64,000 nt of DNA from Ustulina deusta. Its lineage: Eukaryota > Ascomycota > Sordariomycetes > Xylariales > Xylariaceae. The translations under genes were made by a program, and so were the position numbers. How positions within the stretch are numbered: position 1 is the stretch's first letter; each line of letters starts with the position of its first letter. Below the pieces are notes generated by a model that was not told the DNA's origin, ran no database searches, and worked only from the letters and a program-made list of their open reading frames with translations. Of the stretch, positions 39,702 through 61,285 are shown piece after piece. The stretch covers positions 620,001 to 684,000 of the forward strand of contig JAJNNX010000005.1 in NCBI GenBank assembly GCA_023159155.1. The letters run 5' to 3'.

Positions 39702-41617
39702 ATGACTATGGGGGATGCACAAGAGGACCCTCTGGTGTTGGTGAGTCCCACGAAGTCGCTAGTCCGATACTTGGCGAATCTGACAGGCAAAAGAGGTTGG
39801 TGGCGCAGCTTGAATCTCTGGAAAAGAGATGTGTTGAGCTCGAAGCAAGGTGTAATAAATTGGAAGCCCCAAGTAGCGCTGCGACGGTAGTGACTGCTAC
39901 GTCTGTTGTTGTTGATAAACAGACCAAAGACCCCGAGGTAAGGAGTCACTCCTTTCAGAGGACTAGAATGAGCGCGCTTCCCTTTTCATTAGCCCACGTA
40001 CTCCGCCGGACGAGTGTCGAATGGCGATCAAGTACGACTCTACGTATTTTTATGCGCTGGATTTCGCATCATAATAATAACGACCCTTTGTAGAAAGAAA
40101 ACAAAGGTCCTCCCTCGAGAGTCAAGGTAATCATCAGCAAGAGGGACAATGAGGGCGAGCCTATTGAATCCGAAGGAGAGCTGCCAACGACGAAAGAGGA
40201 AGATACCAGCACACACGCATTCGTTTTGAAGAGGATTATTTTTGACAGCACCTCTAGGAGGGACAATGAATCCGAGATCAACATAACCAACCCAGATCTC
40301 TGGAACTTGTTGAAGATGCATCTCCGATGGTATCCATACCACATCTTCAGCGACTCGCCAGTTACTCTGTCTTCGCCATATGAGCCTATTGTCTTTTCCT
40401 GGGATCAGCTTCTTGAAGTGGCTTCCAGTCCTGGAGCGGATAGCGATAGACAGGCCAAGGATGATCTGAAGCTTCTCCTGGACACCATTTCAGGTGGCTC
40501 GTCCGGTGATGAGAAGCTTGACAAATTCTTTAAGATAAGAGACAACTACAAAAACCAACAGCAAGAGACAATTCAGTTCGATGATTTGTGGACCATATTC
40601 CCCCCAGGGACTTTGATATATGGCAAGCCGTTCCAGAACGAGGACCAAGTATTTGTGGTGAGAGATAACAACATGACTTGGCCAAAATGGAACGATGACA
40701 CCAGTGAACACTTCCCATGGGCGCTTGAGGCTTGGTCATATGACTGGAAGGAGGGCTCATTCGGACGAAGTAGCTTTATCTTGAGCTTCGAACACTTCGA
40801 TGGGCACCGACCCGTCACAGCCTTGAAATATTACCCTTTCAAGATGCATAAGGACCGTGAGGCGGTTCAATCCAAACTGATCGAACGAGGAAAGCTTTTC
40901 CAACAGTATTGTAACGCCAAGGATGAGTCGCGGATGTTCGATTACAAGGGCGACGCAATTCCCGAGAAGAAGGGCTTCTCCGGGATGAAAGGCGACGAGG
41001 TTAGTTGTACCCAAAGAGACTTAATCGGATCGTATGCTAACCTATACACAGACAGACAATCAGCATGACTCTCACAGCTCATCAGACTATGATTTCAGCT
41101 TTTTCCGTCGTTTCATGTTCCGAAATTCACGTAGAGACGTGCTTCCAAACGCCAATTCTTCTCGTGTACGTACTCCCTGCTAGGAAAGAGCACGGGTGCG
41201 GACTGACCCATCAGTAGGTAGACGGCAGGGTGATGGTTGACTATGCGTCGTTTTACCAGTACGGGTCAACTAATGGACGCAATGGTCCTTTGTCACGAAG
41301 CGAAACAGGACCAGAATGCGGATGCTCAGATTGCCAAGGTAACGAAGCTTTGGCAGAAAGATACAGGACACGTTTTGATAGGATGCCAAAAAATCAGGAT
41401 TGGGAGGACGAGCAATATCTCCTTTGCCCTCCAAGGGTCCTCGGATACATTCTTGCGGAGAAACAGTGGGCACAACTACAGGTCACCCATCTCAAGGTAA
41501 TCCCCCATGGCGATGACCAGAATGCTTGGAGTTCTCGGTTGAAACTCGCCGATGAGGACTCGAAGAATTTGCTTTTCGATCTTGTGAGATGTCATATATC
41601 TTTAGAGACGCGGGAAA
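39702..41617 (+). pseudogene. AAA ATPase, 5' half (DUF7025-like domain), cut by transposon insertion
   Basis: Exons 39702-39740, 39794-39937, 40094-40999, 41052-41165 and 41218-41617 join in phase. A coiled coil (RLVAQLESLEKRCVELEARC) is followed by the conserved region that precedes AAA modules in a large fungal family: LWNLLKMHLRWYP, LWTIFPPGTLIYGKPFQ, a DWKEGSFGRSSFILSFEHF box, and YLLCPPRVLGYILAEKQWAQ before LLFDLVRCHISLETRE. Family members continue at once into VDDIVPGKGKGL-type sequence and a Walker A loop; here the frame runs into the LINE tail and stops at TGA 41623-41625, leaving at most a 536-aa protein with no ATPase domain. The missing part lies at 60336-61285. With the insert and one duplicated copy removed, both halves share one open frame of 788 codons, so no other lesion is visible. 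The first exon is the least certain. Confidence 0.85.
41604..41617. repeat. Left 14-bp target-site duplication of the LINE
   Basis: AGAGACGCGGGAAA, identical to 60322-60335. Together the two copies bracket the whole transposon island and mark the original insertion point inside exon 5 of the AAA ATPase gene. Confidence 0.9.
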
Positions 41618-41634
41618 TTGATTGATTGATTGAT
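41618..41634. repeat. (TTGA)n tail of the LINE
   Basis: Four tandem TTGA units directly beside the TSD. On the minus strand this is a (TCAA)n tail, typical of simple-repeat 3' ends in fungal LINEs. Confidence 0.75.
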
Positions 41635-44600
41635 TCTGTTTAACGTTGGTACGGGGCGAAAATACTACTTTGTAGACTTCCCTAGGGGTATAAAACGTGG
41701 CAAGCTTTATTTATTATATTATATATTCTATATTAAATATTATTATAGATATAATGCCAGATTATGTTTTGTAAGCTTAATATTTTAATGCTTATAGTTG
41801 CTACAACTTAATCTTCCAAGCTAAAAGCTATGCTTTTTGTTTTTAAGCTAGGTTTTCTAGTAGTATTAGTAAGTTCTAGCTTTTGCTATTTTTTTTATAA
41901 GTTTAAGTTAGTATATTTATTAAAGTAAATAGTTATTTAGTACTATTATTATAGCTTATTTTTATTATTTTATATTTTATATATGTTTTAGGTTTTTTGA
42001 TTTTTTGTTATTATTATTATTATTTAAACGCTATAATTTTATTATTTTAAAAAAAGTTAATAATTGTATGCTTTTGTTTTTTAAGCCGCTAAAGCTTAAA
42101 GTAGAACTATTTTTAGTTTTTTTTTTTAGTTTTTTTTTTTTATAAGTTTTTATTTTTTTTTTTACGTTTTTTTTTAAGCAGTACTACTTTTTTTTTAGCT
42201 AAAAAAGTAAGCATATTTTATTATAGTAGCCTATTGCTTAATAAAACTTTTAAAAAACTATAAAATATTTAACTAGCTAGACTTAATATTTATATTTATT
42301 TATTATATTTTTTAGCTCTAGTTTATATAGTTTTGCTAGCTAGCTATTTATTAATTATTTTATATTATTATATTTTTTATTTAGTTTAAATAGCTTAAGC
42401 TATTTATTTTTATAAATTTTTATAATTTTGTAATAAATTATATATTCTAGGCTTTTTTTAAATATTCTTTTAAAATAAAAAATATAAATATAATAAATTT
42501 TTATATTATTATAGTTAAATTTATTATAGTACTATTTATAGTTTTTATAAACTACTATAATATTTAAATATTAGCTTAAAATCTTTTAAAATAAATATAG
42601 TATTTCTAAGTATTTTTTTAGCTTATATTTAACTTTTATTACTAAAAAGCTGCTAAAAATATTAATATTTTTATTTTTAAGCTAGTTTTTTATTATTTGC
42701 CTAACTTTTAGTTTAGTGTTATGCTTTAGGCCAGCTACTATAAATATTATATTAAAGTTTTAAAATCTTTTTTTTGTTTTAAGTTTTGTTTAAATATTTG
42801 TTTATTTATTACTTTTAATATTATAATGCTTTAAGCTTTAGTATATTTTAATATTATAACGTTTAATTAGTTTATAAATTTTTATAAAAACTTATTATAA
42901 TATTATTAGAATATTTTTTTAGGCGTTTTATAATATTACTATATTATTTATATAAAAAATTATAATAGTATTATTTAAATATTATTTTAAAGTTTTTTAA
43001 AGTTTTTTTAATACTTTTAAAGCTTTTATATTAAATACTACTTTATAAAAATCTAAGCTTGCTTAGTTTTTTATAATTAATATTTATTTTTTATATATAG
43101 TATATTTATATTTTAAGCTATTTTTAGTTTTTAATCTATTTAAAAAAATTATAATATTAAATATTAATTAGTTAGCGAACTATTTTTTAAATTCTTTTAT
43201 TACTATTTTTTTATTAATGCTTATAGTTAGGTTAGCTTTTAAACTTTTTAAGTACTTAAATAAATATAATATTATTTTTTTAATATTTAGTATAAAACTG
43301 GCTATTATTTGTAAGTTTATATAAACATATTATTAATTATTGGCTTTTTTGCTTTATTAGATTATTTTTAGTGCTGTTCGGAATACTAATAAATAGGTTT
43401 TATAAACTATTTTAATCTTAAAAACATATCTATTTCTAGTTTGTTTTAGGGCTATATTTATTATTAAGATTTTATTAGCTATAAAAAAACATATTTAAAA
43501 AATATTTTCTATATTAGTAGTACTCCTTTTGCTATTTTTAGTAGTGCTTATTAGACTATTTATATATAGTTTCCTAGCTTTGTACTAATTGTTTAGTATT
43601 AGCTATTTATTGTTTTGCTTGCTAGTTTTTTTTGTTTTTTATATTAGGTTTTATATTTATATAAAAATACTAATAATAAAACCAAATTAATTATTTTTTA
43701 AAATCTTATAGCTAGGAGGCCTTATATTACTACTAAAATAGCTTTAATATAATTAGCTATTTTTGTTCTTTTGGCTGCTTTTTCTTTTACATACTAGTAG
43801 AACTATAGTTTTTTATCTAGGTATACGCCTAGCCAGAGCAGTACTAAAGTTTGTTTAGGTTTAAAAAAGTTATTTAATAGAACTAATATAATTCGGGTGC
43901 TATTTTTAAGCTTAATAATAAAATTAGCTCTAGTTTAGCTTTTTATAAAATAAATAGCTTTTATTTTTTTAGAAATAAATGCTATTTTATTAGTTTATTT
44001 ATATTTTAAAATCTTATTTACTTATTTTTTAGCTTTTTTAGTGCTTTATTCTAAAGTTTTTTTTATAGTTAGCACTACTACATTATTAGCGTAGCCCTAT
44101 CTACTTAGGTTTTTTTTTACTAGTTTATATAAATATAATATATAAAGTATTAATAATATTAAAAAATTTTATAGTATACTATAATTAGCTATTTTTAGTA
44201 TTATTGCTATATTTTCTAAATATATAGTAATTATTTATTTTATTAAAAAGCTTTTTATAATTTTTATAACTAAAGCAGGCCAGCTCTATTTTATTATTCT
44301 AGTTATAAGTCTATTTTTTAATAAAATATTAAATATTTTTTATATATTTAGTATAACTAATATAGCTATTATTCTGTTTGTTAAAGCAAGCTTAATATTA
44401 TATACTAAGCTAATTATTAGATCTATTACTAATTTTTTAAGTATTACTTTAGTATATTATAAGCTTATTAAACCGGTTTAAAAAGCTATCTAGATTATTT
44501 ATTATATAATAAATCTTTTAAAGCTTTTGCTTATATATAAAAATAAAGCGATTAGTTTTTAAAATTTATATAATATAAAGTTAGTTTTGTTTACTTTTAA

Positions 44601-47600
44601 GAATAAAACTATACTAGCTTTTTTTTAAACTTTTAAAAAAATACTATATTTAAAGCATTTTTTTAGTAAGTTTTAATAATATTTTTTTATTATAAGCTAT
44701 ATTACAGTAAAATATTTTACTATTACTAGGTCTTTTTTTAATAATATTAATATTATTTTAGTAACATATTTCTGGGCTTTTTTTATAGTTATTTTATAGC
44801 TTTAAAAAAAATATGCTTAGTTTTTGGGTTTTAAAAGTTTAACTATTAATAAGTTGTTTTTTAAATTAAATCTTTTTAAAATACTTTAAATAAAATATTT
44901 GGTTTTTTATTTTATTTTAATTATTATTTTATTTCTATTTATAAATAGCAGCAAAATAATTATACCTTTTTGTTTGTATTAATTTATTATTTCTAGTAGC
45001 TTTTTGTCTAATTTTATATTATTAATTTAGTTTTTTTAATATTTTTTTTTGCTTTTCTAACCGTAATAAATAGTTCTTGCCAAATAACCTTTGCATTTTT
45101 AGTATTAAATAACCTTTTAAAGTTAGTTTATATTTTTATATATTTTATTGTTTATTATAGTACTACTTTTTTCTATTTCTATTTTTTTGTTCTAATAATC
45201 TTTATATATATTAATATTAAAATTATTAGTATTTTTATAACTTTTTTTATTTGCTTTGTACTAGTAGTTTTTTTTATATTTAGTAATATATTAGTTTTTA
45301 TATTAACTAGATCTTTTAGCTATACTAGTTTTTTATTTTTAATAAAGATTTTTATTGCTTTTTTTAAAAAATATATTAGGTTTTTTTAAAGTAGTATTAT
45401 TTATAATAGCCTATAGTCTAATAGGATTTCTAGCTTTTTAATTATTTAGTTTTTAATAAAAAATATATTTAAAAATAATATATTTATAATATACCTTATT
45501 TAATATATTAGCTTTTTTAATATATTTATAAAGTTTATTTTTATTTTAGCTAACTAGTTTATAACTTTTTATTTTTTATAAAATATTATAACTTTTAGTT
45601 TTTAATCCAAATATTTAACGTTTAGATCTTTTATTACTAGGTAATTTTTTAATAGTTCTAATATAATAATATATTTTACTACTATATTTATATTTAAAGC
45701 TTTATAATATACTAGCAGCTTATAGCTATTAATATTAAGCTATATTAAGTTTTTATAATAAATTAAAGCTTTTCTTTTTACTTTTAGTTTTTTTTATATT
45801 TTTATATATATTATAACTTTAAGCCTATTAATTTTTTAAATATTTTAAATATTTATTAGCCTAAAATTCTAATATTTTTAGTATATTTATATTTTTTTAA
45901 TTTTTTTTTATTAATTTATAGTTCTATAACTATTACTATATTTATATTTTTGTTTTAGTATTTCTATAAAAATACTAAATAGTTATCTGTTTTATATTTT
46001 ATATTATAGGCTGCTATATTTATTATTTTAGAGGCCTAAGCTAGGGTTTTTTTTTTATATTATTTAGTTATATTTTTGCTCCGCTATTTATTTGATTGTT
46101 TTTTAGTTTAATAGGTTCGCTAGGTTAGTTCTTTAGCTTTTTAGCTCTTTTTTAAAAGTTTTTTAGTATTTTAGCAAGTTATATAGTACTAGTTTATACT
46201 ACTTTTACTAGTCCTTGTATTTTTAAAAAAAAAACTAGTATTATATAAAAAAAAGTTATTAGACTTATAGTAGTAATTTTGTTTTTTATTTTATTATTTT
46301 CTGTTTTACTAAATATTAGCAAAGCTTTTTTATTATTATTATTACTTTATTGTTTTAGTTTTTCTATTATTATTGCTTTTTTTTTATAATAATAATTATT
46401 AATAAAAAGTTCTTATTATTATATTTTTTGTTTTTTATTTATTTTATAGCTTTTATTTTAGTTTATAATAAAAAGATCACTATACTATTTATTTTCCTAA
46501 GCTTTAATAAGTAGTTATTATAGTTTATTAAATAAAAACTATAATAGTTCGTATATTTTAGTAGTAATATATACTTTTTATTATTTATAAGGTTATAAAA
46601 GTTAATTTATATATTATAGTTTTTATATAATAGTTTTTTATTATAAAACTTTGCTATATAATATTTTTAGTATTTTAAGTTATAATAAATAATATAATTT
46701 TGTTTTTTTTTATAAGATAGCTCGCTAGCTAAAAATACCCTAAATTTTTATATAAGCTCTTTAAAAGCTACTACCTAAGTTGCTTTTTTTATTTATAAGT
46801 TAATATTTTTATATAATATATATATATTAATTAAAATAGTTCCTATTTATATTTTAATTTTTATAGCTACTATTTTTTAAATAATATTTATTAAAATATT
46901 TATAAAATAGTCTGTTATAAATAAAAGCACTTTTAAAACTATATAAACTATTTATTCTTTTAGTAGTTTTATTATATTAGTATATAAAGTCCGTTTAATA
47001 ATATTTATGTTTTATTTTTTAAGCAATTTATTTTTTGTTATAAAATTAATAGCTTTAATTGCCTATTTAGTTTTAATAAGTTAAATATTTTATATTATTT
47101 TAAGAAATAGTTATAAATTTTTAAATAATACTATTCTAGCTATATAAACTATTGCTTAGCAAAATTTTATTGCTTTATTACTTAAATAAACTAAAATATA
47201 AATATTTTTGTAAGTTTTTAAAAAAAATATTATTATACTAGCGTTATAAACAATATATATACTAGTTAATATTGAAAATACTATTTTTTAAGCTGGTTTA
47301 AAAAGAAATTTAGTGCTTTATTTAGTTATTTTTATATATAAGAATATTAATATTTAAAATATTAGTTGTTTTAATATTTTAGTTTATATTTATATATTAG
47401 CTAGGTATAAAAGTACTATAATATTACCCCTAGATTATATATATATTAACGTATTAAAATATTGCTTTAGGATTTTTATATATTCTTGGGCTATTTATTT
47501 ATAACTAATATAAATATTTTTTTAAAAAGATTAAACAAAATTATCTAGCACTATTACTAGTATTATTATAACTTTTCTATAGATTTTGTTTTTATAATCG

Positions 47601-47653
47601 ATCCAAGCATATTGCTTAGTTATTATATCTTAAAACAAAAAATCAAAATTATA

Positions 47654-47658
47654 GTTAT
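47654..47658. repeat. Left TSD (GTTAT) of the Ty3/gypsy element
   Basis: GTTAT lies directly before the left LTR and matches 52711-52715 directly after the right LTR. Confidence 0.85.
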
Positions 47659-47901
47659 TATAACGGTTAGTACAGTCTGTACAGTCTTAGCAAAACCCGT
47701 AAGAACTCCAGACCTACATAGCGATAAAATAGAAAATCTACGTACGGACCAACCTAACTCTGCAGCTATACATATAAAGTCTATATCTACCTACCTTATA
47801 AACTCTAACTTTTTTTTTTTTTTTTTTTTTTTTTAGCTTAAAGTTTTTATTTATAGTATTAATAAACTAGCTATAAAAGCTTTATTTAACTAATTATAAT
47901 A
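47659..47901 (+). repeat. Gypsy left (5') LTR
   Basis: 243 bp, starting TATAACGGTTAG and ending CTAATTATAATA. It has a run of about 24 T. Its first half keeps C residues that the right LTR has lost, while its last 60 bp have lost both C and G relative to the right LTR. Confidence 0.88.
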
Positions 47902-50900
47902 CTACTTTAAGCTTACTAATTATTTATTAATAAGTATTTAATAAATATATATTTTTTATTTTATTATAGTTAGCAAAATATAAATAAATTTTTTTTATTA
48001 GTTATATATTTAATATAAAAAATTATATATTTTATAATATAAATCTAACTTTAATATAACTTTAATAAAACTTTTAACTTTTATATTATTTAAAAATTAA
48101 TAATTTATAAAAAACCTAATTTTAAATAATTTTATTTTATTTTTAGCTTTTAAACAATTAAAATAACTTTAATTTTTAAGTATAACTAGCTTTTTATTAT
48201 TAGATAATTTTAAAATCTTTTTTTTTATAAAAAAAAAGAAAATTAAACACTAAATTTTTTTATAAACGCTTTAGGCGAACTAATATTTAAAAAAAAATTT
48301 AAAAAAAACAAAAAATTAAAATTTAAAAAAGCAAAATTTAAACTAGAACTAGAACTATTTAAAATAAGTAATATATTTAGAAATATAGCACTAAATATTA
48401 TAGCTATATAAGCTTGCAATTTTACGTTAGTTCTAATAAAACTTTTTTAATAAATAAAAAAAGTAAAGCGCTAATTTTTTAATATATTTATTTTAATATT
48501 TTTAAACTTTTTAGTTTTGCTACTTTATTTGTTTTTTATTTTATTAGCTTATTTTTTAATGTTTTAAATCTTGTTTATATTAAAAAAGCTAAAATATAAA
48601 AAATTAATTTTAGTAAGTTTATAAACTAATAAAAAAACTAAATAAAAATATTATTATATTTTAAACTAAAAATAGCTAATTTTAGTATATTATAAACTAA
48701 TTAAAAAAATATATTAAAAAATTAATAAAAATATATTTTTATTTAACTAAAAAATTATTTAATAATATTACTAAAATAATTTAAGTTTTATTAATAGTTT
48801 ATTATAACTTTAATTAAATAATTATTATTTATAAAATATTTTAAATTTATATATATAAAACTAATAAAAATATTAATAAGTTTATTTTTATATTTAATAG
48901 TTTAACTTAAAAATATTAACTAGCTAAATTATAATAAAAATATAAATTATAAAACTATTTTTATATAAACTTAAAAAAAAACTTATATAAAATTTTTATA
49001 AATTTAAATATTTTTTATAAATTATTTATTAATAAAATTATTAAATTAATATATAATATTAAGTAAACTTATAAAAACTATTAATAAATTAAATTTATTA
49101 GTTTAATTAAGCAAAAATCTAATTTAAATAACTAAATTTTTAGCAAACTAGCTTATTAATTTTTAGCTAACCTTAAAAGTTCTAAAATATTTATTTTAAA
49201 ATAATTAAAATAAGCGCTAACTATAAAAAAAAAAAAAGCTTATTAAAATAATAAAACTTGCTTTATTTATAGTAAAAAAAAAAAAAATTTTAGTATATAA
49301 AATTAATATAAAACTTTTTGTTTTTTTAGCTATTATATTTAAAAAAGTTCTTTTTAAAAAAAAAAATCTAAAATTTTACTATTATTATAACTAAAATTTA
49401 ATATAATATTAAAATTTAATAATAAAAAATATATTTTTAGCTTTTATTAATATTATATATTTATATAATTTATTTTATTTAAAAAAAAAATTATAAATAA
49501 ACTGCTAGCTATAAATTTTATTAAATAAAATATAAACTTAAATATTACTTTTGTTTTATTTATATTTAAACTTAAATTAACTAAATATAAATTTATAATT
49601 AATTATTAATAAAAAAATATATATTTAAAAAATTAAATTATATTAGTTCTAAATATTAATTGTACTATATTTAATTATTGCAATACTATTTGATTTATAA
49701 AATTAAATATTATTAAAACTTTTTATTAATTATTATTAATTATAAAATTATATTATTTTTTTTTTTTAAACTTATAAAAAAATATTTTAATAAAAAGTTT
49801 TATTATTTAGTTTAAAAATAAAACTTATTTAGTAGCAAACCTTTATTAATATATAAATTTAAAAATTTTTAAATAAGTTTATAAATATTTATATAAATAA
49901 TATTTTAATTTATTTTAAAACTAAAAAATAATACTAGACTTATTATAAAAAAATAATTTATTGCTTATATTAAACTAAATATTAAAAAAATATTAAAAAA
50001 TTTTATTTTAATATATTTATTATTAATTATTTAAAAATAATTATAAAAACTAAAATAAAAATTAAAATTAACTTTATAAAAATCTAAGCGATCCTAAATT
50101 AGAACTTTAATAATTTTAAAAATACTAAGTTAATCTAGTTGTTTTTTAAGCTTTATAATTACGTTCGTATGTTTACTTATTATACTAATAAAATCGCTGC
50201 TCTTTTAAATTAATTACTAAAAAAAAATAAGCTATTTATAATAGAACTAGAACAAAAACAAACTTTCGAACATATAAAACTGCTAGCTTATAAAACACTT
50301 GTTTTAGCTTTTTTTAGACCTGGCTAACTAATATAAATAAAAACAAATATTTTACGTAATATAATAAAAAAAGTTATTTAGTAGTAATAAGAAAATATAA
50401 CCTAAAAATCTATAAAATATTTTTTTAAAATAATAACGCTAATTAAACAAGCTTACTTAATTTAAAACTATAAACTTTTAATAATAATACAAACTTTAAA
50501 ATATTACTACTTAAAGCTTTTTAGAACTAAGTTTTTTGTAATAACTAATTATTAAACTTTATTATATTTTTTAAATAAATAGATTTTATTAATATAATAA
50601 ATATACTAACCTAACTTTTTATTAAACTTTAATATTACTTTTTAATACTAACTAAAACAAAAAAATATAATAGCTAACGTTTTATTAAAAAAAATAGCTA
50701 AGCTTTTTATAATTAAAACTAAAAAAACTAAAAAACAAACAATAGTATTAGTCCTACTTAATAAAATATTAAATTTTATATTAACTATAGACTTTTTATT
50801 TAATATTTTCTAAAAAACTAATTTAATAAACCTAATTAAATAAAAAAATTAGCTATAAAAACTAAAAAATAAAAACAAAAAGCTATATATATTTAAAGTT

Positions 50901-51035
50901 ATTTTAAATAGGATTATTTTTTTTTATATAGTTTTAATTTAAAAAGTTTATATATTTTTAATTGCTATATACTAAAATTAATACAAAACAATTAAAATAT
51001 TAAAACAAAAATATTACTAGTTTTATTTAAAATAT

Positions 51036-51140
51036 AATTATAAATAATATATATATAATTATAAATAATATATATATAATTATAAATAATATATATATAA
51101 TTATAAATAATATATATATAATTATAAATAATATATATAT
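51036..51140. repeat. 21-bp AT tandem repeat, 5 copies
   Basis: Five exact copies of AATTATAAATAATATATATAT inside the gypsy integrase region. With no C or G left it is immune to further RIP, and it probably arose after or late in decay. Confidence 0.9.
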
Positions 51141-52468
51141 AATTATTATAATTATAAAAAAAATAAAATATTATAAAACAAAACTTCTAGCTTTTTTTAT
51201 TTATTATTTATATTAGCTATAGTATAGTAATATATAATAATAAATAGTAAAAATATATTACTTAACTAATAAAATTATAATTATATATAAATATTTATAA
51301 ACAAGTTTAGCTGTCTAATTATAACTTTATTTAATAAAGAAATAAATATAATAAAATTATTAGCTATATAATATTATAAAAGTTTATATAGATTTTTTAA
51401 TATATTAAATATATAAATATTAAATAATATAAGATTATTTATTTTTAAGTTTATAGTAATAATTAATAGTTTTATAAGTACTAAATACTATTTTAGTAAT
51501 ACTTACTATTTTTAGATCTAAAAAGTAGTAAAATTAATTAATTAAAAACTAAACTAGTAATTTTGTTTTTATATTAATAAATACTAAAACAATTAAAATA
51601 TTTATTTTTTTATTTTAACCTTAATATATAATTTTTTATAATATTTATTAATTAATATATTATTACTAAAAATAATAATAAAAATTAAAATATAAAACTT
51701 TTTAATAATAAATATTAATAAAACTATTATAAATTTTAATACTAAATAACAAACGTTTAAACTAATCTATTAAACTTAAAACATTTAAAAAATAATATAT
51801 AATATAATAATTTTTATATAAAAATAATACAAATTATAAACTAATAAAAAAAATACTTAATAAATTTTAAAATAAAAAATAAAGTTTTTTTAAAAAAAAA
51901 AAAGTTTTATAATATAAGTATTAACTATTAGATTGGATTTTTAGTTAGTTAAACTTTTTAAAATTTTAAAAAAACAAAAATTTAGCTATATTTTTAATTT
52001 GTTTAACTTTTATAAAATAAAAACCCTATTTTATACTAACTAATTATAAAAAATAAACAATAACTTTTTATTTTAATAAATCTAATTATTATTTTTAGCT
52101 AAAAATATTAATAATAAAACAAAATTTAAAATTAAATAAATCAAACAATTAAAAATATATAAAAAAAATAAAAAGTTATAATACTAGGTTGCTTAAAAAA
52201 GCTATAATTTTAATAATACTTAATATATAGCTTAAAATTATAAAAATATATTAATTAAACTTAACTAATTTTATAAAACTTATAAAAAAACTTTTAAACT
52301 TTTTATAAAATTATAAAAATAAATATATATAGTAATAGTTAATAAGTTTATAAGCAATTATAAAAATAATAATAAAGTAGTATAATATAAAAAAACTATA
52401 TAAACTTAATATTATTAGTAACTTTAAGTTAAAACTATATTTAAACTTTTGGGTTTAAAAAAAAGTAG

Positions 52469-52710
52469 TATAACGGTTAGTATAGTTTATATAGTTTTAG
52501 TAAGACCTGCAAGGATTTTAGACCTATATAGCAATAAAATAAGAAGTCTATGTACGGACTAACCTAATTTTATAACTATACATATAAAGTTTATATCTAC
52601 TTACTTTATAAACTTTGATTTTTTTTTCTTTTTTTTCTTTTTTAGCTTAGAGTCTTTGTCCATAGTATTAATAAACTAGCTATAGAAGCTTTACTCGATT
52701 GATCGTGATA
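52469..52710 (+). repeat. Gypsy right (3') LTR
   Basis: 242 bp, starting TATAACGGTTAG and ending GATTGATCGTGATA, followed by TSD GTTAT (52711-52715). It keeps GC in its last 60 bp (CTTTACTCGATTGATCGTG) but has C-to-T losses in its first half. Confidence 0.88.
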
Positions 52711-52818
52711 GTTATTTTTTCCGGCTATTTTAAGCTTTGGGAATAGGTTTGTTACTTAAATTTTAGTCCGCTTGGCTTATTATAAGTTAGTTCTTAATAA
52801 TATATCTATAGCTGTTGC

Positions 52819-53062
52819 TGTTAGATTCAGTGTTATAGAGCGTACCGCATATATATATTTAGATCGCTTTATCTATTATTGTTTTTTATAGGTCCTATTT
52901 TGCCTTTATAAAATATTTATCTATAAGCTTGCTAGTAAGTATAGCCTAGCCACACTTATTAAGCCACATTATTAAGCCATAATACTTATATAACCAAGTA
53001 ATCCTGCTATCTATATTTAATTAGCTCTTTTTATAGCTACTAGCTATAAACTAAATCTAATA
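52819..53062 (-). repeat. Copia left (3') LTR
   Basis: 244 bp, TGTTAGATTC ... AAATCTAATA; the terminal CA has become TA. Preceded by TSD GTTGC at 52814-52818. Confidence 0.88.
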
Positions 53063-56000
53063 TACCTTTTTAAGGAAAATTATTCTAATAACTCTTTTTA
53101 TATATATATTATTATAGTTATAAAAATAGTTATAAATAAATATTAAAATATAAATAATATATAAATAATTATATAAGCTAGTTTTAAATATTATATATAT
53201 TACTATATAACTATTTAAAATATAATATAGCAAACTTAGTAGGCAAAAATATTTATAAAAAAGTACGCTTATAAGTATAATATATATAAGCTTACTTTTA
53301 ATATTACTAGAGTTTTCTTTTTTATTTTTTTTTATTTTTAGTTTTTATAAAATTTTTATAGTAAGTTTTTAAAACTAAAATATTAAATACTTTACTTTTT
53401 TATAATAAGATCTATACTAATTTTTTTTTTAGTTTTAATTATAAAAATATTTTTTGTTAGTATATTATTAACTATTAAAAAAAAATTTATTTTTATTATA
53501 AGTTTTAAAAAAATTTTAAGTTGTTTAATAAAAAGCTTACTAATATATATAAAAAAAACTATTATAATGTTTTTTTTGTTTTTTTTTTACTTAAATTATA
53601 ATAGCTAGCGCTTTTAACTAAGCTAAAACTTATAAATATAATATATAATTGTTTTTTAAGTTAATAATTAATAAGTTTATTGTTAGTTTAGAATTATTAT
53701 TATTAAATAATAATAATATTTTTATATGCTTTTTGCTTTGCTTTTTATTTATTATAAAGCTTTTAATATATTATATCTTTATTACTATTACTGCTATTAC
53801 TATTTTTTTAATACTTTTCTGCTAAACTTTTACTACTATTACTACTACTTTTAAAATAACTAATTTTTTGCTAGCTTTGCTTAGTACTTATTATTTAGTT
53901 TTTAGCTAGGTTATTCTAGTTATGCCTATACTACTACTAGTTCTGCCTAGTCGAACTTTTAGTAGCTAAAATATTATGTTTACTACTGTTGCTTTTTATA
54001 GTTATAGCTATGCTTTGTTTTTATAATAAGCTGGTCCCTACTTATAGCTAGTATTTTTAAAGATTTTTTAAAAAATACTATATTTATAGTATACTTATAG
54101 TACTTTTTAGGGTTGCTTAGATAGTAACTATATTAAAACGCTTAATAATAAGTTATAGTATTTATAGTATACTTTTAAGCATATATATAAGTTTTTATAA
54201 GTATATTTTTTAATAATTAGTAATAAGTACTAATTATAAATAGTTTTATTAATATTAAGCTTTATATTTATTATTTTTGGGATATTTTTATAAGAAGCGC
54301 TAGCAATACTACTATTTAAGCTTTATAAACTATAATCTATACTATATTATTTTTTTATTGCTTAAAAAAAAATATTTTTTATAAGCTTTTTGCCATTTTA
54401 TAATAAAATTAATATTTTTTAAAATAGTTAAGTTTTTATATTATTAGCTCTAAAGCTTTTTAAACATATAAAAATACTTTATAATCTTTTTATTAATATA
54501 TTATAAGCTTATAATTTATGTTTAAATAATATTTAAACGTTTTATTTTATAAATTTTTTTTTAGGTAGTAAATTTTTGATTTTTTTTTAAAAAACTAATA
54601 TATTTTACTAAACTTTTTAGTTATATTTAAAAAACTTATATAATTTAAGCTATTTTAAAAAAATTATTTATTTTAGTATAAATAAAGCTTTTATAAGTTT
54701 ATTAGTAATTATATTATTAATAAATATATATTTTATTATAATAGTTCTATTTTTAACTTTTTAGTATAACTAGTAGTTATAAATATTAATATATTATAGT
54801 TTAATATATAACAAAGCTACTTTTTTTATAATAAGCTTTATAGTTTGCTAATTATTATATTATATTTATATTTGCTAATTTTATAATACTACTTTAAGCT
54901 TATTAATAAACTAATTAATAAATATTACTTTTTTAGCTACTTGGGCTAAAACTAAAAGTTCTGCCTTAGTTATAGATATAATAACTATATTTTATTTATT
55001 AGCTCGCTAGCAGATTATTTCTTTAAAAAATTTTATAATATAAGCTTAAGAGCTCTTTTAGTTAAAAATATTATTTATAAAAAACATATTGCTAGCTACT
55101 ATAAAATTATTCTTATTTTTAAATTATAATATATAGTACTATATAAAAAATAAATATAATAAAAGTTTATTAGTAGCTTAGTAATACTTAAAAAAAAGAT
55201 TATAGTTAAATTATATAAGCTTAAAAATTTTAAACGCTATATTTAAATATATTATTACTATAATATATAAAATTAACCCTATTTTTTATTAATAATATTT
55301 AATACTAGCAAATATAAAATCTTTTTATATAAAAAAAGCTTTTAAGTTTTTATTAAAGTAGTTATATAAGCTATAGCTATAATATTTTATAGCTTAATAA
55401 TCTTTTTAATATAAAAAGCTTATAAAAGCTAAAAAAAGCCTTTTTTTTTATTTCTAATTATTTTAATACCTAAAAACTATTATAAGTTTTTATTTTTAAT
55501 AAAGTTATAATATATTTTAAGTATAGCAATTGCTTTATTTATAACTTTTTAGTTCTTTTATTTATATGCTATAACTATATTATTAATATATATAAACAAA
55601 AATATACTTTTTAAGGAATAGTAGTAGGGTTTATAAAGTATTAGCTTAAAGCCTATTTTTTATAATAACTTAGTAAGCTTTTTTTGCTATAGCAAAAAAA
55701 ACTTTTAAAACTTATATAAAGCTTATAGTAGCTTAACTATAATATTTAGTTTTTAGTAACCTAAAAATATATATATATAAATCTTTTTATTTAATTTAAT
55801 ATTTATAAAAATATTTATAATATTATATTGCTTAAGTTCTAAATTAAACTTAGTAGCAATAGTTATTAATATTTTAAAAGATTTTTTTGCTAATATATTA
55901 GTATAAGTATCCTTTTAGTTATTATTTAGTTACTAATCTCCTTATACTATTAGATAAGTTTTATATTTTTTATAGTACTTATATTTATTAAACTTATAAA

Positions 56001-59000
56001 TATAAACCTATATATAATCCAAAATAATCTTTTTTTATAAAAAGCTTTTAAGTACTTTTTTTTAAATACTTATTTTTTTATAGCTTTATAAATAAATAAA
56101 TTCTATTTCTTTAAAGTAATCTTTTAGCAAATAGTTTATAAAATCTTTATACTACTTTAATAATTATAATAAATCTTATTAATATATATTTTTTTTTAGT
56201 TTAGAAAAGTTTATAATTGAGCTTTTAAACAACTAGTATTTAGCTTAAGGGCTTTTTTTTTTTTACTAGCAAAACTTTTAATAAAATTTATTAGTTATAA
56301 TTAGTTGTATAATAGCTAATAAGCTTTTTTAAAAGCTTTTTTCTTTTTATTAATAGAGCTTTTAATAAGATTTAATAGCTATAATTAAATATATAATAAA
56401 TAATAGGCTTTTTTAAGGGGTTTTTTTTTTTTACTAATAAAGCTTTTAATAAGATTTAATAGCTATAATTGGTTATATAATAGTTAATAAGCTTTTCTAA
56501 AGGCCTTTTTTTTTTATAAAGCTTTTAATAAAATTTAATAGCTATAATTAGTTATAATAGATTTTTAAAAAACTTTTTAATAGCTTAGCTTTTTTGTTTT
56601 TAGTTATTAATTTGCTATTAATAATTATTACTTTTTATAATCTAGCTATATTAAAGCTAGTTGTTTAATAAGCTATAATTAAAACATTAAAAGTTAATTT
56701 AATAAAAATTTAATATTAATTATTAAATAGCTTTTTATTTAAGCTTAGATCTAGCAATTTAGCTTGTAGTATTACTAAATATAATAAAATAACTTTTAAA
56801 CTTTATAATAATATTAGTAATCTAAAAACAAACTATAAATTAGTATAAAGATAAAAGTCTTAATAAAAAACTTTTGCTTTTTTTTTTATAAGCTTGTTTT
56901 TATTAGAATTTTTTTTAGATTTAGATTTATTAGCATTTTTAGTATTGCTTTTTAAAAGTTAGCTAATAAGCTTATTATTTTTTTGTTTGTTAGCTATATT
57001 CTTTTTGAAATTAAAAATATTTTAATAACTAATATTATTTATTAATACTTTATATATTTTTAAAATTATTTTTATTATTACTAAAAAACTTATTTTTATT
57101 AAAAACTACATTTTTTATTACTATAATTTTGTTTTTTTTAAAAAACTAGATATAATAAGTATTAATAAATTAATAGCTTATTAAATAGCTTATCTAAACA
57201 TTAAAATTAAGCTTTTTATGCTTTTATTTTTTAAGTTTAGTTTTAATAGTTATAATAAATATTATATACTTAAATATTTTTAAATAAAATATATAAAATA
57301 TTTGATTATAACTAATAAACTTTTATAAATAATTAAAATATAAATAGAATTTTTTATATAAAGCTTGCTAGTAATTAATTTGCTTAAATATTTAATTATA
57401 TAAATATATTACTATTTAAACTATTTTAGGCCAAAAAAAAACAAAAAATTTATAACTATTATATATTAAGCTTGCTTAACACTTAATAATACTTTTTATT
57501 TTTTTAACTGCTTTATTAAAATCTTAAATATATAATAATAAAATTTTAAAATTTATTTTATAAGTTTATTTTATAGCTATTACTAAATATATAATTTTTT
57601 AATTATTACTAGCAATTTTATTATTATATTTATAATTTTTATTTTATTATTATAGTATATTTAAATATATTAAATATAATATTTATAATTTTTTTAAATA
57701 GTATTAATATATTTATTATTAATATAATAGTTCTAAATATAACTTAAGTATTAATTAATAACTAATATAATATGTTATAAGTACTTATTTTTATTAAAAG
57801 TATTAAATTTATAAAAATTAACTATTAATTAAATATTAGCTTTTATAACTTTTAAATAAACACTTTATACTATTTTATAATAAACTTTAGATTTACTATA
57901 TATTATATAGTTTATAGTTTAGATCTTATTATTAAAATATAAAATAATTACTACTTTTTTTATATAATTAAATAATTATTTTAAAAGTTTAAAGCTTATA
58001 TATTTTAAATATTAGTACTACTTATAAAAGCTAGCTTAAGATTTAGAGCGCTTTATATAAAAGTTTAATATATTTTTTTATATATAAAATATTTGCTTAG
58101 TTAAACGTTCTAAAAAATATTCTATAATATATTAGCTATATATTTAGGTTAAAGAATATAGGAGCTCTTTTTATTAGTATTTTAAAAGATCGGACTTAAA
58201 TTTATTATTTTAGTATATGCTTGTTTAGTTTAGAACTTATAAAAAAACTAAGTTAGTAGCTATATCTAAGCAAAAAGTAATATTATATAGCTAATATATA
58301 ACTATACTTTTTAGGCCCTAAGCCTTAATATTAATCTTGCTATAGCTATATATATAAATTGCACTATTTCCTACTAGTACTATATTATCTAAGTTAGTAT
58401 TTTTTAAATATATAAAATAATATGCCTAATTAAATATATAAATAATTAATCTAAAATCTACTATAGCTAAATTATATAATTTATATGTTTTAATAAACCT
58501 TTAGTTAATAATAAACAAACTTACTACTTTTGCTATAAAAAACCTTAAAAATTAATTATTTTAAAAATTATTTTTTAGAACTTTAAATTTTACTTTTTTT
58601 TTTTTTTATTACTTCTATGCTTTTTTTACTGCTTATTTAACATTTTTTTTATTTGCTATATATATTTTAGCTATTCTATTAATACTTTAATTAAATTTTT
58701 AGCTTTTTAGTTAAAGCTTTATAAATATAAGCTAGTAGCTTAATATATAATAATAATTATAATATATAATATAATTCTTTATATTTAGGTTTTTTTTTTT
58801 TAGCTTTAGTTTTTATATTAGTACAAAAATATTTAATAAAAATATTTTTAAAGCTTTTTTTTTAATTATTTTAATAATTTTTGCAACTATTATTAGTTTA
58901 GTATTATTAGTAGTTTTTATAATTTTAATAATTTTATTTAAAATAATCTTTTTTTTAATTGTTTATAAAATTGTTTAAATTATTTTAATTGTTAAAAAAT

Positions 59001-59857
59001 TCAAAAGTATTAAAAATACTTCTTTTAACAATTTTTCTAAAAATATAAGTTATACTTAGAATTATAGCTTTTTAGTATAGTTCGGTAGTAATAGTCTAGT
59101 ATTATAAAATATTATTTATAATAGTATTATAATAAATATTTTAAAAAAAAATAACCTAAACTAAATAAATATTTTATAAAACTTTTTCCAAATCAATAAT
59201 AAACTTAAATAAATTTATTATTTTAGTACTTTTTAAATAAGCTTTAAAAACTTTATTAAACTACTTATTTATTTATTTAATTAAGTTTTTAATAAGTTTT
59301 CTAATTATAAAATTAATAAAAACTTTATATTTTAATTTATATTTAAACTTTAAAACATATTAGGCTATATTTTTAAGTTTCCTAAAGTTATTATATTACT
59401 TATCGATTGTTTAATTAACTTTTATTTATATTAAATAATAGTTTAAATAAATCGTTTTATATATTTATTTAGTAAACTTAGTAAGCTTAATTTAGTAGTT
59501 AATATAATACTTAAAAGCAATTTTATAGCACTATTTAATGTTTTAATATAGCGCTTTTCTAATAACTATTAGCTCTATATATATTATAGTATTAAAATCA
59601 GTAGCTCCAATAAAAAAGAAATTGTTTATTAGTAGTATGCTTAATAGCTAAAGCTATAAAGCTTGCTTTTTTTCTAAAACTATATATTTTTAAAAGTTGC
59701 AATTATAAGCGCTAATAATAAAATCTTCTTTTTATAATAAAAAATCTTCTAAAAAATTAAACATAATAATATATTGTTTAAATATAATAGCAATTTTTAT
59801 ATATTTCTAGCTAAAGATCGCTTATAATAAAGTATAAAAATTAATAAAACTTTTAAT

Positions 59858-60101
59858 TATTAGATTTAATATTATAAAGTGTACTATATATATATGTTTA
59901 GATCGCTTTATTTATTATTATTTTTTATAAGTCTTATTTTGCTTTTATAAAATATTTATTTATAAGTTTGCTAGTAAATATAGCTTAGCCATACTTATTA
60001 AGCCACGTTATTAAGCTATAACGCTTATATAACTAAGTAATCCTGCTATCTATACCTAATTAGCTCTTTTTATAGCTATTAGCTATAGGCCAAATCTAAC
60101 A
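59858..60101 (-). repeat. Copia right (5') LTR
   Basis: 244 bp, TATTAGATTT ... AAATCTAACA; here the terminal TG has become TA while the final CA is kept. Followed by TSD GTTGC at 60102-60106. Same length as the left LTR. Confidence 0.88.
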
Positions 60102-60321
60102 GTTGCTTCTATATATATATCTTTGAATATTATAGCTAGGCATAACAGTATTGCTAGGTCCTATATTAGTAAGGTTTTTTAGCCGGGGCTAAATATTATT
60201 ACTAATCAAACCTTTAGTATTTTGTAGAAATTAGCTAAAATTTAGCGCTATTAGTGTTTTTGGTATATTGTCCGCAATACTACTAACAGTAGCTTGCGCA
60301 CGGATGATAAATAGAAGGAAG

Positions 60322-60335
60322 AGAGACGCGGGAAA
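60322..60335. repeat. Right 14-bp target-site duplication of the LINE
   Basis: AGAGACGCGGGAAA, identical to 41604-41617. The codons that follow (AC AAC GGT GAA AAC) continue the AAA ATPase frame. Confidence 0.9.
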
Positions 60336-61285
60336 ACAACGGTGAAAACCCACTTTCGGTAGATGACATAGTTCCTGGAAAGGGAAAAGGCCTAGTGATA
60401 CTGCTTTACGGTACGAATCAGTGCGCCTTCTGATGCCCACCGCTAACAGTAGACAGGTCCGCCCGGAGTCGGCAAATCTTCGACCGCAGAAACCATCGCA
60501 GTAGCCGCACGGAAGCCGTTGTTCTCAATCAGTGTTGCCGATGTCGGTACGAAAGCCAAACATGTTGAGTCGAACTTGTCAAAGATATTCTCCCTCGCAA
60601 CCTATTGGAAAGCAATCCTTCTTATGTTTGTGATGCCTTAATAGATTGTGTATATATATGCGCTAACTTGTAATTAGAGACGAGGCCGACGTTTTCTTAG
60701 AGAGTCGGGGACGGGGAGGGATAGTCCAGTCAATGGATAAGAATGCTCTAGTTTCGGGTAAGCCAAATTCAATCACCTATTTCCAGTGCTCCGCGTTACA
60801 GCCATGGACTTGGCATGGAAGTGGCAACGCTAATTTTAACAATGACAGTTTTTCTCCGGGTGCTCGAGTACTACCGAGGCATCATGTTCCTTACAACAAA
60901 CCAGATCGCCGAGTTTGATGTTGCAATCCCGTCTCGAATACATATCGCTATCAAGTACGAAAGTCTAAGAACCGATCAGATGGAAGCCATATTCAAGGGA
61001 TTCCTCGACAACCTACACAAGCGGAATCTGGTTGACGATTACAATGGGATCATGGACTGGCTGAAAGAAGACGTCTATTCGGAAGGACTCGACGGCCGCC
61101 AAATCCGCAATACTATCACTACGGCATTAGATTTAGCTAATGCAGACGCGAAGTACAACAATGGAAATAACAAGTTGCGAAAATCCCATATCAAGAGGAC
61201 GTTTAACAATGCCAAGAAATTCAAGCGAGACTTCGATACACAGATGCAACGATACAAGGATTCTCAGAGCAAGATGATCCAGTAA
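60322..61285 (+). pseudogene. AAA ATPase, 3' half (Walker A to C-terminus)
   Basis: Continuation of the gene begun at 39702. Exon parts 60336-60410, 60457-60625, 60678-60757 and 60849-61285 are joined by introns of 46, 52 and 91 bp, each with a recognisable acceptor and in phase. In order: LSVDDIVPGKGKGLVILLYG, Walker A GPPGVGKSSTAETIA, Walker B ILLIDEADVFLESRG (rebuilt across an intron), sensor-1-like IMFLTTNQIAEFD, and an arginine-finger region IPSRIHIAIKY, ending in a basic helical C-terminus. All catalytic AAA features are present, so this half is not decayed. Cut off from its promoter and N-terminus by 18.7 kb, it is probably silent unless transcribed from within the insert. Confidence 0.88.

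What the first reader, a model, noticed from the sequence alone, without database searches (positions are those of the whole stretch)
39702..61285. AAA ATPase gene split by an 18.7-kb nested transposon island with the host reading frame preserved
Both halves of a DUF7025-like/AAA ATPase gene sit on either side of the AT-rich block. A 14-bp direct repeat marks the breakpoint inside one exon, and removing the insert plus one repeat copy gives a continuous frame across nine junctions (2,364 nt, divisible by 3). The inserted elements are reduced to TA-rich rubble, yet the host exons have no stop. Either RIP stopped sharply at the element edges, or the disruption is recent and decayed elements were RIPed in few sexual cycles. 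Alternatively, the halves are still expressed separately.
Basis: partly seen in the sequence, partly recalled or inferred. Interest (0 to 1): 0.85.

Follow-up and report, generated by a model that had tools for sequence, protein, structure and literature searches.

The report
Gene split by nested mutated retrotransposons
In the wood-rot fungus Ustulina (Kretzschmaria) deusta, a jumping element landed inside an ATPase gene, two more landed inside it, and the fungus's own repeat-mutating defence wrecked all three while leaving the gene halves readable; it is a clean, datable example of a known process rather than a new one.

Summary
Confirmed. A DUF7025/AAA+ ATPase gene without a close paralogue (39702-61285) is cut inside exon 5 by 18,704 bp (41618-60321) flanked by a perfect 14-bp repeat. 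Both halves keep the same phase; exon lengths sum to 2,364 nt, and relatives carry both halves in one ~790-aa protein. The insert has three layers: a full-length 6.36-kb antisense LINE with a (TTGA)n tail, from a dispersed family (ten fetched sister copies, each with a 12-16-bp duplication), and two elements with LTRs (5,052 and 7,283 bp, 5-bp duplications GTTAT and GTTGC) in its 5' end. The low GC is repeat-induced point mutation: 1,415 transitions but 14 transversions in 6,032 sites against a sister copy. Transversions private to this copy number 7 in 5,925 sites, so the insertion is recent and open exons are expected without selection. The element's outermost 25-42 bp carry no such mutation, and the gene is free of it beyond perhaps 22 bp. 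The left half is the annotated protein, stopping three codons past the break; the right half has no in-frame ATG before its P-loop. Most likely an ATPase null allele. One sister copy is mutated almost wholly on one strand, suggesting that about four or five rounds sufficed here.

The parts
39702..41617 (+). 5' half of the host gene (five exons: 39702-39740, 39794-39937, 40094-40999, 41052-41165, 41218-41617); DUF7025 domain; annotated in public data as a 536-aa protein ending three codons after the break
   Evidence: Pfam PF22942 E 1.3e-23; 100% identical to P0001, Ustulina deusta F4824DRAFT_448835; splice sites and phases
41604..41617 (+). 14-bp target-site duplication, left copy
41618..47658 (-). 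LINE (non-LTR retrotransposon), 3' part with (TTGA)n tail at the left edge; 15.5% GC
   Evidence: BLAST alignment from the left edge to 8 of the 10 fetched copies (L050-L054, L056, L057, L059); L055 and L058 align from 42.1-42.3 kb on; RT-region match on the minus strand, E 4.6e-26; RIP indices
47659..52710 (.). LTR element 1, 5,052 bp, nested in the LINE; LTRs about 47659-47901 and 52469-52710; TSD GTTAT at 47654-47658 and 52711-52715; 11.4% GC
52716..52818 (-). LINE remnant between the two LTR elements
   Evidence: matches L050 6690-6807; boundaries
52819..60101 (.). LTR element 2, 7,283 bp, nested in the LINE; LTRs of about 240 bp, outer ends TGTTAGAT...ATCTAACA; TSD GTTGC at 52814-52818 and 60102-60106; about 14.7% GC
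   Evidence: LTR pair 88% identical, 30 transitions and 0 transversions over 240 sites; ends
60107..60321 (-). LINE 5' end, weakly RIPed
   Evidence: 84-92% identical to 9 of the 10 fetched copies (all but L058); 27 other matches in the genome
60322..60335 (+). 14-bp target-site duplication, right copy
60336..61285 (+). 3' half of the host gene (exons 60336-60410, 60457-60625, 60678-60757, 60849-61285); AAA+ core with Walker A and B and fungal lid domain
   Evidence: Pfam PF00004 E 5.3e-18, PF23232 E 1.1e-8; phases and splice sites

Best explanation
A full-length LINE inserted by target-primed reverse transcription, antisense, into exon 5 of a DUF7025-AAA+ ATPase gene of Ustulina deusta, making the 14-bp duplication (shown: anatomy; inferred: priming mechanism). 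Two LTR elements then inserted into the 5' end of that LINE, 103 bp apart (shown). All three were hit by repeat-induced point mutation (shown for the LINE by its substitution spectrum, for the other two by composition and LTR pairs), apparently independently of the sister copies, in probably four or five strand-wise rounds (inferred). RIP kept to the repeats apart from perhaps 22 bp of exon, so both host halves stayed open. The left half ends at a stop supplied by the LINE tail and the right half lacks an in-frame ATG before its P-loop, so the allele is most likely null for the ATPase (inferred; no RNA data).
For: One gene: P0002-P0009 (8 of 8) are 779-821 aa with DUF7025, AAA and lid domains; identity to the left half 0.61-0.76 and to the right half 0.84-0.93. 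Founder LINE: the block's two ends recur in 41 other left-end and 27 other right-end matches, lower bounds, some being pieces of one copy. Ten fetched copies run 6,335-6,500 bp with similar ends. All 10 carry a duplication of 12-16 bp with 0-2 mismatches, all transitions; 0 of 100 shuffled flanks reached the observed score in any of the 10 (the stricter first script found exact 13-15 bp in 5 of 10 only). Nesting and 5-bp duplications. RIP: 1,415 transitions against 14 transversions in 6,032 sites versus L053; CpA 80%, CpG 74%, CpT 55%, CpC 49% mutated. Recent: 7 private transversions in 5,925 sites; expected stops over the gene 0.34-0.66, P(no stop) 0.52-0.71 (stop fraction from 1,995 of the 2,364 nt). 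Boundary: 0 of 6 C/G sites changed in the first 25 bp, rising to about 60% inside; 0 of 16 in the last 42 bp. Independent RIP: site sharing between copies is alike on both strands, L053 included. Null: break followed by ATT GAT TGA; TGA and TAA upstream and no in-frame ATG in 60323-60412. DNA-methylase domain at three loci of the genome.
Against: No reads, RNA or second isolate could be examined, so the empty site is inferred. A spliced or otherwise started product of the right half cannot be excluded. Absence of both stops and indels has P 0.07-0.26 under neutrality with an assumed indel rate, so weak recent constraint is possible. One conserved left-half residue and a neighbour differ next to the break by changes of the RIP kind, so RIP may have leaked up to about 22 bp. 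LTR1's pair shows 4 apparent transversions in 252 sites, some in a poly-T run. More sites than expected are mutated in all four heavily RIPed copies (615 observed, 500 expected). The RIP methyltransferase itself was not identified; only the domain was found.
Confidence: 0.9

Rival explanations
1. The two halves are still expressed and used as separate proteins (a DUF7025 protein and a free AAA+ ATPase), so the break is a gene fission under selection.
For: Both halves are open. At columns invariant in the 9 relatives, the left half has 2 unique substitutions of 140 and the right half 0 of 135, among the lowest of the 10 sequences. The left half is annotated as a protein.
Against: The transversion clock makes open frames expected without selection. 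The right half has stops directly upstream and no in-frame ATG before the P-loop. Among the best 120 of 744 matches to it, the highest identity is 85% over 59% of its length, so no stand-alone U. deusta protein was found; the search sees only proteins of 0.55-1.75 times its length.
Confidence: 0.05
2. Assembly artefact: unrelated AT-rich repeats were wrongly placed inside an intact gene.
For: Highly repetitive AT-rich DNA is prone to misassembly; no reads were available.
Against: The insert parses into three elements, each bounded by its own target-site duplication (14, 5 and 5 bp), with the LINE pieces in the right order and orientation. The ten fetched copies of the LINE have similar ends in different flanks, each with its own duplication.
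Confidence: 0.03
3. The LINE arrived already RIPed, by trans-mobilisation of a dead copy, so the decay says nothing about the time spent in this gene.
For: Mutated sites coincide between copies beyond trinucleotide context (Mantel-Haenszel odds ratio 3.6-4.0 on the + strand, six pairs); 615 sites are mutated in all four copies where 500 are expected.
Against: The same kind of excess is seen on the - strand (2.2-4.5 over six pairs and two context depths, 2.2-3.9 for the pairs with L053), although L053 has almost no + strand mutation; site hot spots explain this for every pair and strand, a shared mutated ancestor does not easily. Fetched copies range from 14% to 35% GC.
Confidence: 0.05

Closest known systems
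Nested transposon clusters with base-element target-site duplications in Mycosphaerella graminicola, PMC4522978 (passages seen)
   Same: Class I base element with later insertions, recognisable TSD of the base element, GC drop over the cluster
   Different: There 78 clusters, 7.5-63 kb, and the TSD table seen is for LTR base elements; here the base element is a LINE and it sits inside a coding exon
Repeat-induced point mutation as measured in Neurospora crassa, PMC7296669 (passages seen)
   Same: Clustered C-to-T changes on one strand per round, mostly in duplicates with a weaker effect in 400-bp flanks
   Different: Here seen as standing copies in another genus, with CpT and CpC also changed at about half of the sites over the whole history
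RIP leakage into single-copy DNA, Cladosporium fulvum, PMC9453070 (passages seen)
   Same: RIPed repeats next to single-copy DNA
   Different: Here leakage, if any, is limited to about 22 bp at one edge

Membership tests
Non-LTR retrotransposon (LINE) | Target-site duplication of variable length | tested here: met
   14 bp here; 12-16 bp with 0-2 transition mismatches in 10 of 10 fetched copies, shuffles reaching it 0 of 100 each
Non-LTR retrotransposon (LINE) | Simple-repeat or poly-A 3' tail, no terminal repeats | tested here: met
   (TTGA)n or its RIPed form TTAA at the left end of 10 of 10 copies; the two ends are not repeats of each other
Non-LTR retrotransposon (LINE) | Endonuclease and reverse-transcriptase ORF | tested here: met
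   Sister copy L053 matches residues 80-1191 of the L065 ORF, E 4.7e-105; the window copy matches its RT part, E 4.6e-26; that ORF has PF14529, PF03372, PF00078 and PF00075. Distant relative, about 23-26% identity; no open ORF was sought in the RIPed copies
Non-LTR retrotransposon (LINE) | Clade (Tad1 or other) | not tested
   No tree was built
LTR retrotransposon (two nested elements) | Direct terminal repeats and 5-bp target-site duplication | tested here: met
   Both elements
LTR retrotransposon (two nested elements) | TG...CA termini | tested here: inconclusive
   LTR2 outer ends TGTTAG...CTAACA fit; LTR1 reads TA...TA, as expected if RIPed
LTR retrotransposon (two nested elements) | gag-pol coding region | tested here: inconclusive
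   Ten RVT_1 ORFs of the genome (of 56 matches) gave no tblastn match to the nested bodies, but the one scanned is a LINE type and the bodies are 11-15% GC; no LTR-type pol was queried. The name rests on termini and duplications
Repeat-induced point mutation | Near-exclusive C-to-T transitions in repeats with CpA preference | tested here: met
   1,415 ts to 14 tv; CpA highest
Repeat-induced point mutation | Single-copy flanks spared | tested here: met
   RIP indices and frames of the flanking exons; possible leak of about 22 bp
Repeat-induced point mutation | RID-type DNA methyltransferase | tested here: inconclusive
   PF00145 found at three loci, not classified
DUF7025-AAA+ fungal ATPase | DUF7025, AAA core with Walker motifs, AAA_lid_13 in one protein | tested here: inconclusive
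   All domains found, but on two halves in this genome; in one protein in P0002-P0009

The most novel reading that the evidence does not exclude
This LINE family is a natural series of copies frozen after different numbers of one-strand RIP rounds. L053 was mutated essentially on one strand (440 of 1,175 against 32 of 1,368 sites), so it may calibrate a single round; together with the transversion clock, the number of sexual rounds since each insertion could be counted in a wild fungus, about four or five for the split gene.
Probability: 0.4. Interest if true: 0.5.

Novelty: new member of a known kind. Interest (0 to 1): 0.35.

Why it matters
It is a well-resolved case showing that heavy RIP decay (15% GC) does not mean great age: change other than RIP is near zero. 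That warns against dating fungal repeats by GC or identity and explains how open gene halves can lie beside ruined elements. It also shows that the annotated 536-aa protein (P0001) is the front half of a broken gene. The one-strand copy may offer a way to count RIP rounds in nature.

Tried and rejected
Gapped self-comparison of the AT-rich block gave mostly compositional noise; boundaries were taken from sister copies and the repeat pairs. RVT_1 ORFs did not match the nested LTR elements. Fission with separate function was set aside for lack of a start codon and because neutrality suffices. Pre-RIPed arrival was set aside after the strand test. Whether nesting shielded the short LINE remnants from RIP was tested: 25 of 117 C/G sites changed here against 47 of 127 (L050, p 0.008), 56 of 127 (L052, p 0.0002) and 30 of 127 (L051, p 0.76) (run with boundaries 2 bp off those); suggestive of early nesting, not settled. 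Literature searches: (listings). No paper was listed that holds DUF7025 or that holds Ustulina deusta with Xylariaceae and genomes; the library covers open papers only. PMC12543289: passages only, no occurrence of Xylariales.

Full report
Organism and gene. The window is G000:C69:620001-684000 of a 56-Mb, 123-contig genome. The left half is 100% identical to a 536-aa protein named from Ustulina deusta; Kretzschmaria (Ustulina) deusta is the naming in PMC5658485 (whole text). Pfam finds DUF7025 in the left half and AAA plus AAA_lid_13 in the right half. The best relatives, P0002-P0009 (8 of 8), are single proteins of 779-821 aa with all three domains. R. necatrix P0002 has 787 aa, the length implied by the 2,364-nt sum of exons here. 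In the same genome the next-best match by score has 29% identity to the left half and 46% to the right half, so no intact close paralogue was found.

The break. The 14-mer AGAGACGCGGGAAA lies at 41604-41617 and 60322-60335 and nowhere else in the window on this strand. Left and right frames pass through it in the same phase. The cut exon continues with matching phases through three more introns to the stop at 61283-61285.

The insert. The two edges are the two ends of a dispersed family: 42 left-end and 28 right-end matches, the window's own included; lower bounds, some rows being pieces of one copy. Ten copies with both ends 6,335-6,500 bp apart were fetched. All 10 begin with TTGA or TTAA repeats; flank GC was 0.36-0.55 on both sides in 9 of 10 and 0.47 and 0.24 in L055. 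All 10 have a 12-16-bp duplication with at most two transition mismatches. Aligning the window to L050 leaves two gaps: an LTR element at 47659-52710 with GTTAT duplicated, and another at 52819-60101 with GTTGC duplicated. The LINE pieces sum to 6,359 bp. Reverse-transcriptase homology lies on the minus strand, so the repeat tail at the left is the 3' end. First-look candidates in the genome were 1,133 for the LTR of element 1 and 115 for that of element 2, 40 scored in each case.

Decay. Against the sister copy L053 (35% GC, the highest of the ten) the window LINE shows 1,415 transitions and 14 transversions in 6,032 sites, with all C contexts hit and CpA most. Against L050, L051 and L052 the transversion share is 0.20-0.42%. 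Among five copies, private transversions were window 7, L050 8, L051 3, L052 17, L053 3 of 5,925 sites. If the window copy has accumulated 0.12-0.23% transversions and non-RIP transitions are twice as frequent (an assumption), the gene would carry 8-16 changes and 0.34-0.66 stops. Open exons therefore need no selection. No absolute date is claimed.

Edges. RIP-type change is 0 of 6 C/G sites in the first 25 bp, 9 of 39 in the next 75 bp, and about 60% inside; at the right edge it is 0 of 16 in the last 42 bp. Host RIP indices on the left are ordinary (TpA/ApT 0.44 in 41400-41617); on the right, 60322-60520 gives 1.29 and 0.77, RIP-like by themselves, but at 53.8% GC and with few dinucleotides. 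Of two left-half residues that differ where all 9 relatives agree, one lies about 22 bp from the break and its codon difference is of the RIP kind; a neighbour is similar but less conserved: possible slight leakage. In N. crassa, duplicates and their 400-bp flanks differ about 14-fold in rate (PMC7296669, passages).

Rounds. L053 has 32 of 1,368 + strand sites changed but 440 of 1,175 - strand sites (sites changed in all copies are missed). PMC7296669 reports that about 91.9% of mutation clusters were one-stranded and takes this to mean that one round acts on one strand (passages). Taking L053 as one round gives 39% per round (369 of 947, sites where L051 has G) or 29% (192 of 671, sites where L050 has G); the window copy then needs about 2.4 + 1.5 or 3.5 + 1.6 rounds, four to five in all. 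This is an inference with a rough assumption: several rounds on the same strand in L053 would mean more rounds here, and hot spots blur the figure. Site sharing between copies is similar for all pairs and both strands, which fits hot spots and independent RIP after insertion.

Consequence. The left frame runs GAA ATT GAT TGA over the break, matching the ...TREID end of P0001. The right half has TGA and TAA directly upstream and no in-frame ATG up to the P-loop, and no stand-alone database protein was found (744 matches at E up to 1e-40, best 120 listed, highest identity 85% over 59%). I therefore read this as a recent ATPase-null allele in the sequenced strain, at about 90% confidence for the anatomy and cause and less for the expression claim.

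Noticed in passing
L061-L069 (C65, C40, C30, C49, C113): Nine reverse-transcriptase frames of 881-1,293 aa are open, four with identical RVT_1 scores on three contigs (C40 twice, C49, C113); L065 is LINE-type by Pfam. A family that seems recently active and has escaped RIP in the same genome.
   Followed up: partly
L053 (G000:C57:384600-392250): A LINE copy mutated almost only on one strand along its whole aligned body, a possible snapshot of one or few RIP rounds.
   Followed up: yes
window 41718-60099: Remaining cytosines sit mostly in ACT and GCT (1,459 of 2,548), showing what RIP spares in this fungus.
   Followed up: partly
G000 C1:1114335-1128215, C80:1212448-1233878, C107:13938-27260: Other pairs of LINE ends lie 13-21 kb apart, suggesting further nested clusters built on this LINE.
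   Followed up: no
G000 C71:69865-70901, C24:88571-89842, C106:72419-73111: Three loci with a DNA-methylase domain, candidates for the RIP and DNA-methylation enzymes.
   Followed up: no
whole genome: DUF7025/AAA genes form a large divergent family here: beyond the gene itself, 12 exon matches to the left half and 52 to the right half.
   Followed up: no
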